Below, piece after piece: positions 33,394-46,490 of a stretch of 64,000 nucleotides of DNA (position 1 is its first letter; each line of letters starts with the position of its first letter). The DNA is from an uncultured Bacteroidia bacterium (GTDB lineage Bacteria; Bacteroidota; Bacteroidia; Bacteroidales; UBA932), in the NCBI GenBank assembly GCA_902790635.1, contig CADASN010000007.1, positions 16,542-80,541 of the forward strand, read 5' to 3'. The notes below the pieces were generated by a model, which had not been told where the DNA came from, made no database searches, and worked only from the letters and a program-made list of their open reading frames with translations. The translations under genes were made by a program, and so were the position numbers.

Positions 33394-33478
33394 CGGACAG
33401 CAGGCTGCCGCACCTTCTCCCTGTTGCTTCGCAACCCTACCCGGGAAAATGGTCGAAGGTGCGGCAGCCTGCTGTCCG
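33394..33478. repeat. Palindromic element with perfect 24-bp arms in the glnS leader
   Basis: The left arm 33394-33417 and right arm 33455-33478 are perfect reverse complements (outer part CGGACAGCAGGCTGCCGC). The 37-nt loop holds a second hairpin, GTTGCTTCGCAAC. The outer arm and the GCTTCGC module resemble the in-gene element at 46133-46262. Confidence 0.92.
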
Positions 33479-44983: not shown

Positions 44984-46459
44984 CTACCTGCCAGCGCGGG
45001 AGAGCGGTTCCGTGACCAGAAGCACGGAGGAGCCGTCGGCGAGGCGGCAGCCGAAGAGGTGGGCGTCGCCTCCGGGTGCGATGCCCAGTTTTTTCCGCAA
45101 GGCTTCGCTGCCCAGCGGGAGATTGCGGGCGGTGACTTCGGCGCGGGGGTAGCGTTTCCGCAAGTCCTTGAACGCCTTGGCGCCGAAAGGGAGCACGTCC
45201 CGGATGCGCCAGGCCTTGAAAAAGGGCGGGACGTCGTAGTCCTCGGGGGCGCCGGGAGGGGTTTCTGCCCCTGGCGAAGGAAAAACTGCGCTGCTGGGGG
45301 CGCAGGGGGCCGTTTCTGCCCCTGGCGGAGAGAAAACTGCGCTGCCGGGGGCGCAGGGGGCCGTTTCTGCCCCTGGCGGGTCAGGAAATAGGTACAGATG
45401 CGTGGAGTGTGCCAGTTTGCGCAGCCCCCAGCGCTCGCAGGGCAGGCGGAAGGCACCGGCCTTGAGCAGGGCGGGGCAAGGCTCCAGCAGCGTGTCGCCC
45501 GGCTGCAGCCCGACGGCATAGCTCACGGCTGCCGCCCGCTCCTCGAAAGGACGGAAGCGCATCGTGGCCGCGTCCGGTGCGGGTGTTTCCGGGGAAGGAG
45601 AACGCAAAGAAGAGACGACGATCTCGAGTGCGGCCGTGGCCGGATCCCGCCGGAGCAGGCAGAGCAGCTCCTTGACCTCGCCGTCGAGCTCCACGACGTG
45701 GATCTCCTGCAAGGCAGGTCCGAGCCTGTCGGCGAGCATCGAGAGGTCGGCCATCGGGGAGAGTTTGAGCAGGACGGCCGGGGCCTTCTGCAGCAACAAA
45801 GGGAGCAGGGTCAGGATGTCCGGGGTGCAGTCCTCCAACAGGAAAACCTTGCGTCCGGCGGCGTCCCGGCGCGCCGGATCGGCATAGATCAGGTCCGCCT
45901 CCGGCAAATCAGTCTCCGGCGTCACTGCCTCGCAACGCAGCTCGATATTCCCGGCGCCCAGCCGGGCGAAATTCCGCTCCGCTGCCGCCGCCAGCTCCGC
46001 ATCCCGTTCGTAGTACACCACCCGCTCCGCCACCTTTGATAACCCCCACGAATCAACCCCCAAGCCTCCGGTCAGGTCAAGAATTGACCTTATAGGCGCC
46101 TTCGCGTCGCTCAACCTGTCGTAGCCATGTTCAGCCGGAGCAGGCAGTGCTGCACGCAAAACCGTGCCGCCCGTGGCATCGTGAACGGGAGGAGCCCAAC
46201 CACCAGGTTGGGAGGGATAGCGCGAAGCGCATAGTTTTGCGGCAGCAACTGCCTGTCCGGCTAAGTGTGCTTTGTAAAGAGCCGTGGCGGAGGAGGAGCA
46301 TTGTTCGAGGGAGAGGGCGGAGGGAAATTCGAGCGGGTCGAGTCCGGCGTCACGGCGCGCGGCATCCGCGGCGGCCCATTCGGGCAGCTTCCGGGCTACC
46401 TTGTGTGCCCGGTCGCCGTCCAAGTCCTGCAAAATATCCGCAAAACTCCGTTTCATCAT
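44984..46459 (-). CDS. Class I SAM methyltransferase with THUMP-like domain, carrying two in-frame repeat insertions
   Basis: A 491-residue protein; the ATG at 46459 is preferred over the in-frame GTG at 46462. The methyltransferase core has ILDLTGGLGVDSWGLS (SAM motif I) and DLIYADPARRDAAGRKVFLLEDCTPDI, both typical of the THUMP-like-domain family. The C-terminal part (EVTARNLPLGSEALRKKLGI) is the THUMP-like RNA-binding domain. The probable role is RNA methylation. Relatives are around 390-400 residues. The excess is explained by two non-conserved segments: residues about 66-109 between YKAHLA and SILDLTGG, and about 360-400 between THLYLFPD and YDVPPFF. Both coincide with repeat elements, yet the frame is intact. 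Confidence 0.85.
   Translation of the reverse strand: MMKRSFADILQDLDGDRAHKVARKLPEWAAADAARRDAGLDPLEFPSALSLEQCSSSATALYKAHLAGQAVAAAKLCASRYPSQPGGWAPPVHDATGGTVLRAALPAPAEHGYDRLSDAKAPIRSILDLTGGLGVDSWGLSKVAERVVYYERDAELAAAAERNFARLGAGNIELRCEAVTPETDLPEADLIYADPARRDAAGRKVFLLEDCTPDILTLLPLLLQKAPAVLLKLSPMADLSMLADRLGPALQEIHVVELDGEVKELLCLLRRDPATAALEIVVSSLRSPSPETPAPDAATMRFRPFEERAAAVSYAVGLQPGDTLLEPCPALLKAGAFRLPCERWGLRKLAHSTHLYLFPDPPGAETAPCAPGSAVFSPPGAETAPCAPSSAVFPSPGAETPPGAPEDYDVPPFFKAWRIRDVLPFGAKAFKDLRKRYPRAEVTARNLPLGSEALRKKLGIAPGGDAHLFGCRLADGSSVLLVTEPLSRAGR
45261..45380 (-). repeat. 51-bp in-frame tandem repeat inside the methyltransferase gene
   Basis: GTTTCTGCCCCTGGCG begins units at 45261, 45312 and 45363, exactly 51 bp apart, two full copies and a partial third. 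On the minus strand each encodes 17 residues (PPGAETAPCAPGSAVFS and variants). The CCGCCAGGGGCA core matches hairpin arms at 18066-18152. Confidence 0.9.
46133..46262. repeat. Palindromic element in frame inside the methyltransferase gene
   Basis: Arms of about 30 nt (46133-46162 and 46234-46262; shared core CAGGCAG) pair with three single-base indels. Inside are CCCAACCACCAGGTTGGG and a GCGCTTCGCGC-type hairpin. The arm sequence CCGGACAG..CAG..TGCCGC and the GCTTCGC module resemble the free-standing palindrome at 33394-33478. Confidence 0.8.
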
Positions 46460-46490
46460 CACAAAAGTAACATTTTCTCCGATTTTTTCT

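What the first reader, a model, noticed from the sequence alone, without database searches (positions are those of the whole stretch)
46133..46262. A palindromic mobile-like element sits in frame inside a methyltransferase gene
Seen directly: about 30-nt imperfect inverted arms with internal hairpins lie within an uninterrupted coding sequence. They correspond to about 44 residues between two conserved blocks (YKAHLA and SILDLTGG) that are nearly adjacent in relatives. The outer arm (CCGGACAG..CAG..TGCCGC) and the inner GCTTCGC module resemble the intergenic palindrome at 33394-33478. Inference: one family of small palindromic elements inserts both between and inside genes and adds a peptide without destroying the protein, as Rickettsia palindromic elements do.
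Basis: partly seen in the sequence, partly recalled or inferred. Interest (0 to 1): 0.75.

Follow-up and report, generated by a model that had tools for sequence, protein, structure and literature searches.

The report
Palindromic DNA parasites inside bacterial genes
A family of small, hairpin-forming mobile DNA elements in gut Bacteroidales repeatedly sits inside protein genes while keeping their reading frame, adding about 40 amino acids, much as elements described from Rickettsia do.

Summary
At 46133-46262 (minus strand) a 130-nt palindrome with three inner hairpins lies in frame in a methyltransferase gene. It is one of at least 23 copies in this genome: 16 in frame inside 15 open frames (polA, uvrD/pcrA, ygiQ, ribF, queH, RNase R and others) and 7 between genes. 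Base pairs covary (26 of 35). It matched in 22 of 25 sampled genomes of the genus, 73 of 199 of the family, and 0 of 16 from other families of the order. Of 18 loci compared between three related genomes, 12 have a clean empty orthologue. At the methyltransferase site 19 of 42 orthologues are filled, in at least five orientation/frame states. Orthologous copies change both arms in mirror fashion (16 mirrored, 9 one-sided); in one pair the core is inverted between shared arms. I read it as a parasite that works like Rickettsia palindromic elements, with arms kept paired by template switching or by pairing selection; what mobilises it is unknown. The 33394 palindrome is not a clear member. My idea that arms are copied from the target failed an unselected test.

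The parts
46133..46262 (-). whole palindromic element, in frame in the methyltransferase (43 residues)
   Evidence: covariance model hit 119.7 bits; 5 other DNA matches in the genome; 23 structural matches at E<1e-3 including this one
46234..46262 (-). 5' arm (AGCCGG...AAAAC on the minus strand), pairs with the 3' arm
   Evidence: fold; all 22 modelled arm pairs change on both sides in at least one own-genome copy
46220..46230 (-). inner hairpin 1 (GCGCTTCGCGC)
46195..46212 (-). inner hairpin 2 (CCCAACC TGGT GGTTGGG)
   Evidence: its sequence differs between copies while mostly staying self-complementary
46167..46192 (-). inner hairpin 3 (CCTCCCGTTCACGATGCCACGGGCGG), the most conserved part; 99.4% of cells paired, two of its seven pairs change on both sides
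   Evidence: helix 4
46133..46163 (-). 3' arm
44984..46462 (-). host gene: putative methyltransferase with THUMP-like C-terminal domain, PG_1098 type
   Evidence: Pfam PF18096 and PF22013; PDB 3ll7, named putative methyltransferase
   Evidence: 24-25 bits on both strands; only itself found in the genome by DNA search

Best explanation
A family of non-autonomous, hairpin-forming mobile elements, mostly about 110-175 nt (three-hairpin core between two long complementary arms), that has spread in one family of Bacteroidales and is retained inside protein genes where it keeps the frame and falls in a tolerated loop. Shown: discrete insertion; many dispersed copies; both orientations and several frames; recurrence in the same loops of the same proteins; strong covariation; mirrored arm changes in orthologous copies; one core inversion; core-deletion remnants. 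Inferred: (1) copies move by an unknown enzyme acting in trans; (2) selection removes out-of-frame and damaging insertions, so what remains reads as an extra, probably disordered peptide; (3) mirrored arm changes and core inversion come from replication template switching between the arms, or the mirrored changes from selection for pairing.
For: Own genome: 23 places at E<1e-3 with model R1 (two further listed rows are wrong-strand echoes; 150 of 779 first-look candidates were scored). 16 copies lie in 15 open frames, 7 are intergenic; 14 of the 15 host frames have Pfam hits. In the YgiQ N-domain and the RNB domain the domain match runs across the insert; in QueH the best match stops where the insert begins and a second stretch is counted. 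Covariation: 26 of 35 pairs, score 0.481 against 0.153 shuffled and at most 0.106 slid (alignment fitted to the model). Distribution. Empty sites: 12 of 18 loci aligned between G003, G080 and G085 have a clean empty orthologue. Recurrence: methyltransferase 19 of 42 filled, at least 8 presence changes and 16 state changes on the tree, 14 without the two rows whose frame could not be assigned; ygiQ, same loop in G000, G008, G080 but empty in G003 and G085; ribF, same loop in G000 and G080, with a shortened in-frame remnant in G003. Mirrored changes: 16 mirrored, 0 double but not mirrored, 9 one-sided in 209 paired positions of 8 of 11 orthologous pairs, about 0.7 mirrored expected if independent. 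Core inversion L161 against L203; core deletions L191, L291. AlphaFold: pLDDT below 50 for residues 82-121, which take in about two thirds of the insert; its first part is modelled as the end of a helix (mean pLDDT 60.8).
Against: No mobilising enzyme was found: Y1 transposase (PF01797) gave no match in this 83%-complete genome; 12 of 13 tested genomes have Y1-like matches, 11 over the cut-off, but the 6 loci fetched hold no match to the model. No regular target duplication: 5-bp direct repeats at two loci only (L167, L223, the second with an extra base; read by eye). GC-rich composition alone leaves many frames open (79 of 138 open, 68 expected), so stop avoidance is not itself striking. Three genus genomes of 25 had no match, and 126 of 199 of the family had none (strict filters). 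In one orthologous pair (L231/L220) none of 3 changes was mirrored. No expression or protein data.
Confidence: 0.85

Rival explanations
1. The element is a conserved functional RNA or regulatory structure (for example a riboswitch, terminator or RNA-processing site) that happens to lie in genes as well as between them.
For: Very strong base-pair covariation and a conserved third hairpin.
Against: No Rfam family reaches its gathering score in 7 sampled loci; the single listed match (mir-14, 23.6 bits against a cut-off of 53) lies outside the element. Copies sit in unrelated genes, in both orientations, and are absent from orthologues, which does not fit a gene-specific regulator.
Confidence: 0.08
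2. Arms are made at each insertion by inverted copying of the target flank (snap-back priming), so that each copy has arms unique to its site.
For: Arms are close to unrelated between copies of one genome (58-60% against 53-55% shuffled) while cores are 75-79% alike (arm windows were placed by best pairing, which may blur register). In some filled/empty pairs one outer arm matches native sequence: hand-picked stretches 59 of 74 identical in 7 loci, for example the conserved 3' end of what looks like a Fur-type gene (L166/L222 against L192; gene type judged by eye).
Against: Unselected test on 13 filled/empty loci: arms match their own empty junction no better than other loci's junctions, mean rank 7.15 of 13 (7.0 expected), first in 3. 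Two copies of G080 at different loci (L237, L244) share a 15-nt arm stretch.
Confidence: 0.07
3. Ancient insertions inherited vertically, with orientation and frame changed later by flips and small indels, rather than repeated insertion.
For: One clear core inversion between shared arms (L161/L203) shows that orientation can change in place; several copies are shared by orthologous loci of related species.
Against: Copies present in one of three related genomes only, with both others empty: L237 and L242 in G080; L167 in G003; L229, L249, L245 in G085. Frame state also varies among same-sense copies at the methyltransferase site: S0 8, S1 3, S2 3.
Confidence: 0.15
4. REP/BIME-type sequences moved by RAYT (Y1, HUH) transposases present in the genus.
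For: Y1-like genes of about 300 aa in 12 of 13 genomes tested; four of five read loci have similar palindromes on both sides of the gene.
Against: Those palindromes are different, simpler hairpins, and no match to the three-hairpin model lies in the 6 fetched loci; the window's own genome has no Y1 match.
Confidence: 0.2

Closest known systems
Rickettsia palindromic elements (RPE)
   Same: Palindromes of about 150 bp in many copies, a good part of them in frame inside unrelated genes, adding a peptide (review PMC10969869, passages; PMC3733652, passages). The original RPE papers were seen only as references.
   Different: Different phylum; here both orientations and several frames are used at one site, arms are close to unrelated between copies, and arms of orthologous copies change in mirror fashion, whereas PMC6649704 (passages) says the Rickettsia elements were found to lose repeat identity over time. 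No sequence comparison with RPEs was made.
Coding palindromes of Nematomorpha mitochondria
   Same: Long inverted repeats inside protein genes, arms kept identical, repeat conversion by template switching proposed (PMC6649704, abstract and passages).
   Different: There both arms encode conserved host sequence; here it is a dispersed family with a shared core, absent from orthologues. That the former share no core is my reading of the passages.
MITEs such as QMITE1/2 of Coxiella
   Same: Small dispersed non-autonomous inverted-repeat elements, sometimes in frame in genes (PMC5896051, abstract and passages).
   Different: MITEs are described as 70-300 bp with 15-30 bp terminal inverted repeats (PMC3733652, passage); target duplications are recalled as usual. 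Here terminal sequence differs between copies and no regular duplication was seen.
REP/BIME sequences with RAYT genes
   Same: Dispersed hairpins; Y1-like genes exist in the genus; CGTC-type REPs are reported in Bacteroidetes (PMC3733652, passage).
   Different: REPs are 20-40 bp and extragenic (PMC3733652, start of abstract); here about 130 nt and mostly intragenic in this genome; no core beside the 6 fetched Y1 genes.
Template-switch homogenisation and spacer inversion of short inverted repeats in yeast
   Same: The process homogenises arms and can invert the spacer (PMC8604942, abstract and passages).
   Different: There a mutation process on short repeats with inverted spacers of a few bases; here it would act on a core of roughly 75 nt.

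Membership tests
Rickettsia palindromic elements | about 100-150 bp palindromic repeat, many copies (lower bound of size recalled) | tested here: met
   23 copies of 122-175 nt in this genome
Rickettsia palindromic elements | in-frame insertion in unrelated protein genes as well as copies outside them | tested here: met
   16 in 15 open frames, 7 intergenic
Rickettsia palindromic elements | element encodes a conserved peptide (PMC10969869); use of one preferred frame is recalled | tested here: not met
   both strands and several frames used
Rickettsia palindromic elements | sequence kinship with a named RPE family | not tested
   no RPE sequence was fetched
MITE | shared terminal inverted repeats | tested here: not met
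   arms 58-60% alike between copies of a genome, 53-55% when shuffled, in 3 genomes
MITE | target-site duplication of fixed length (recalled) | tested here: inconclusive
   5-bp direct repeats at 2 loci (L167, L223), read by eye, none evident at the others
MITE | an autonomous partner element with the same ends (recalled) | not tested
   only Y1 genes were looked for; no match to the model in 6 such loci
REP/RAYT | the palindrome flanks a Y1 transposase gene | tested here: not met
   0 matches to R1 in 6 Y1 loci; other Y1 loci not looked at
Rfam RNA family | score over a family's gathering score | tested here: not met
   none in 7 loci

The most novel reading that the evidence does not exclude
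A self-preserving coding parasite: host replication template switching keeps the arms of each copy paired and flips the core, so one insertion can be re-read in a new orientation; with repeated insertion in the same tolerant loops (methyltransferase, ygiQ, ribF) the family acts as a standing generator of new 40-residue segments in housekeeping proteins across a bacterial family.
Probability: 0.35. Interest if true: 0.85.

Novelty: new variant of a known kind. Interest (0 to 1): 0.74.

Why it matters
[quoted passage not shown] Here a family of Bacteroidales shows it, with empty and filled sites in related genomes. That makes old questions testable: how such elements move, how palindromes persist in coding DNA, and whether parasites supply new protein segments. 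It also matters for annotation: these roughly 40-residue segments are a recurring DNA element, not conserved protein sequence.

Tried and rejected
Arms derived from the target: suggested by selected junctions but not supported by the unselected permutation test. Regular target duplications: not found beyond two loci, by eye. Y1 transposase as partner: no link found. Known RNA family: none. Three equal-scoring G021 matches were first taken for recent transposition; they lie at contig ends, two with similar flanks, and are better read as assembly or strain variants of one place. A codon-usage classifier of genic copies was too weak in this GC-rich DNA (it called 7 of 63 loci, and missed the methyltransferase itself) and was not used; own-genome classification rests on open frames and Pfam. 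Stop-codon avoidance: only slightly above composition. A first frame assignment at the methyltransferase site mixed anchors; it was redone with one anchor in hairpin 3, which changed the states but not the totals of 8 and 16 changes. Literature searches that returned nothing to the point. Searches gave the papers cited; of these I saw listings and the passages or abstracts named, no whole text. The 2002 RPE paper was not held. That no such family is described for Bacteroidota rests on these searches of open-licence papers alone.

Rows dropped: L078, L079, L080 were left out of the 42-row tree as the same genomes as L065, L064, L067 (judged by equal contig length and sequence). Of 11 orthologous pairs aligned (L217/L216, L228/L246, L238/L252) were left out of the mirrored count because their arms needed gaps or differed widely; in L166 one extra base of one arm was left out, and the outer ends of arms were trimmed by hand. 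Of 28 loci whose flanks were searched (6, 22), 18 were aligned with relatives; L228, L251 and the 8 G016 loci were not. L240 and L232 were not used in the 13-locus junction test (remnant or another insertion at the site), L244 because its alignment was poor, and L048, L155, L161 because no empty site was found. L223 was compared with one relative only; its second relative (L292) has another insertion there. L031 had no anchor in the frame table.

Full report
Observation. The palindrome at 46133-46262 is real and lies in frame on the minus strand in a 492-codon methyltransferase gene. It folds far better than shuffles (z -8.0). A DNA search of the window's own genome found five other similar places, and a covariance model built from these six (R1) found 23 distinct places at E<1e-3 (150 of 779 first-look candidates scored, so this is a lower bound). 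The window's genome is 83% complete.

Anatomy. Copies have two long complementary arms around a core of three hairpins. Hairpin 3 is the most conserved; hairpins 1 and 2 and the arms differ in sequence while mostly staying self-complementary. On 24 distinct aligned rows (one of them a wrong-strand row of L010), 89.4% of cells pair (69.3% in shuffles), 26 of 35 pairs change on both sides, and the covariation score is 0.481 (0.153 in shuffles, at most 0.106 in slid controls); the alignment was fitted to the model, which favours it. A second small palindrome is nested in three copies (L019, L025, L030).

Where copies lie. In this genome 16 copies are in frame in 15 open frames and 7 are intergenic. 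Pfam hits support 14 of the 15 host frames, this methyltransferase among them; from the hits I name them polA, uvrD/pcrA, an FAD-dependent protein with two copies, an HI0933-type flavoprotein, ribF, dsbD, a TPR protein, queH, ygiQ, RNase R, an HHH protein, trmB and dnaX; L020 has no hit. In trmB the insert is close to the C-terminus. I saw no copy breaking a frame, but an out-of-frame copy in a decayed gene could have been counted as intergenic. Copies are read from both strands and several frames. Because the DNA is GC-rich, many frames are open anyway (79 of 138, 68 expected).

Distribution. 22 of 25 genomes of the genus, own included, and 0 of 16 from other families of the order matched; in the family 73 of 199 genomes and 11 of 25 genera matched (strict filters, few candidates scored per genome). 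The 15 named methyltransferase relatives are Bacteroidales or Bacteroidia MAGs; 7 titles name a ruminant host and 6 more bear RUG names, which I recall as rumen genomes. I did not establish the organism's name.

Empty sites. In G003, G080 and G085 (long alignable stretches 80-94% identical), 18 of 28 loci whose flanks were searched were aligned. Twelve have a clean empty orthologue (L166, L167, L168, L225, L237, L229, L239, L223, L249, L245, L242, L231). Of the other six, L048 is filled in the relative, L155 is filled in one and a remnant in another (L186), L161 has lost its core in L191 and has it inverted in L203, L240 meets a remnant (L291), L232 meets another insertion, and L244 aligns poorly. 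L237 and L242 are in G080 with G003 and G085 empty; L167 is in G003 with both others empty. Several lie at close or overlapping stop/start junctions (by eye).

Recurrence. At the methyltransferase site 19 of 42 distinct orthologues have the element (model R1, E up to 0.01, weakest L069 at 0.0043). With one anchor in hairpin 3 the states are S0 8, S1 3, S2 3, A1 1, A2 2, and two not assigned in frame (L069, L095). On a quick tree built without the site, at least 8 presence changes and 16 state changes are needed, 14 without the two unassigned rows (17 of 39 inner branches are poorly supported). L065, L069 and L076, a supported clade, differ: S2, antisense, S0. The site lies just before the first strand of the methyltransferase fold; the homologue 3ll7 has about 5 residues there. 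In the model, residues 82-121 are below pLDDT 50 (the insert is about 67-110; its first part continues a helix; mean pLDDT 60.8). ygiQ and ribF are hit in the same loop in different lineages.

How copies evolve. Between orthologous copies, changes in one arm are mostly mirrored in the other: 16 mirrored, 0 double but not mirrored, 9 one-sided and 184 unchanged of 209 positions in 8 of 11 pairs. In L161 against L203 the arms are shared and the core is inverted. Template switching between inverted repeats is reported to do both (PMC8604942, abstract and passages); selection for pairing could explain the mirrored changes but not the inversion. Arms of different copies in one genome are nearly unrelated (58-60% against 53-55% shuffled), cores 75-79% alike. 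I first thought that the arms are copied from the target; a test over 13 loci gives no support (mean rank 7.15, 7.0 expected).

Movement. No enzyme was identified. Y1-like matches occur in 12 of 13 genomes tested but not in this one; the six fetched loci hold no match to the model. Four of the five whose sequence was read carry their own simple palindromes on both sides (L308, L309, L310, L312).

Judgement. It works like Rickettsia palindromic elements, and it shares size, palindromy and in-frame intragenic insertion with them, but single-frame reading is not met and kinship was not tested, so I do not file it as an RPE. I call it a new variant of a known kind. In my searches (listings, and passages of the papers named) I found no description for Bacteroidota; CGTC-type REPs, which are short and extragenic, are reported there (PMC3733652).

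Noticed in passing
   Followed up: partly
L019, L025, L030 (own genome), inside the element: A second small palindrome (CCCCACAAATCTG...GATTTGCGGGG) nested inside three copies of the element.
   Followed up: no
L062 2319-2445, L073 2268-2394, L076 2554-2686, L068 2306-2427: A second place in the methyltransferase gene of relatives also carries the element, roughly 600-860 bp downstream of the first.
   Followed up: no
window about 45230-45390: The methyltransferase has tandem proline-rich repeats (PPGAETAPCAP) in a region of low predicted confidence (residues 363-411).
   Followed up: no
G016 and G076, matches of about 164 nt: A separate set of copies of almost constant length and mostly low score, probably another subfamily, poorly covered by model R1.
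   Followed up: no
L241 (G080) and L253 (G085): The element sits in frame a few residues after a GPNGTGKTTLLK motif (P-loop, recalled) in an open frame shared by two species.
   Followed up: no
L289, about the junction with L232: Another palindrome (TGTCATTTCGAGCGAAG...GGAGTCGAGAAATC) lies at one of the sites in place of the element.
   Followed up: no
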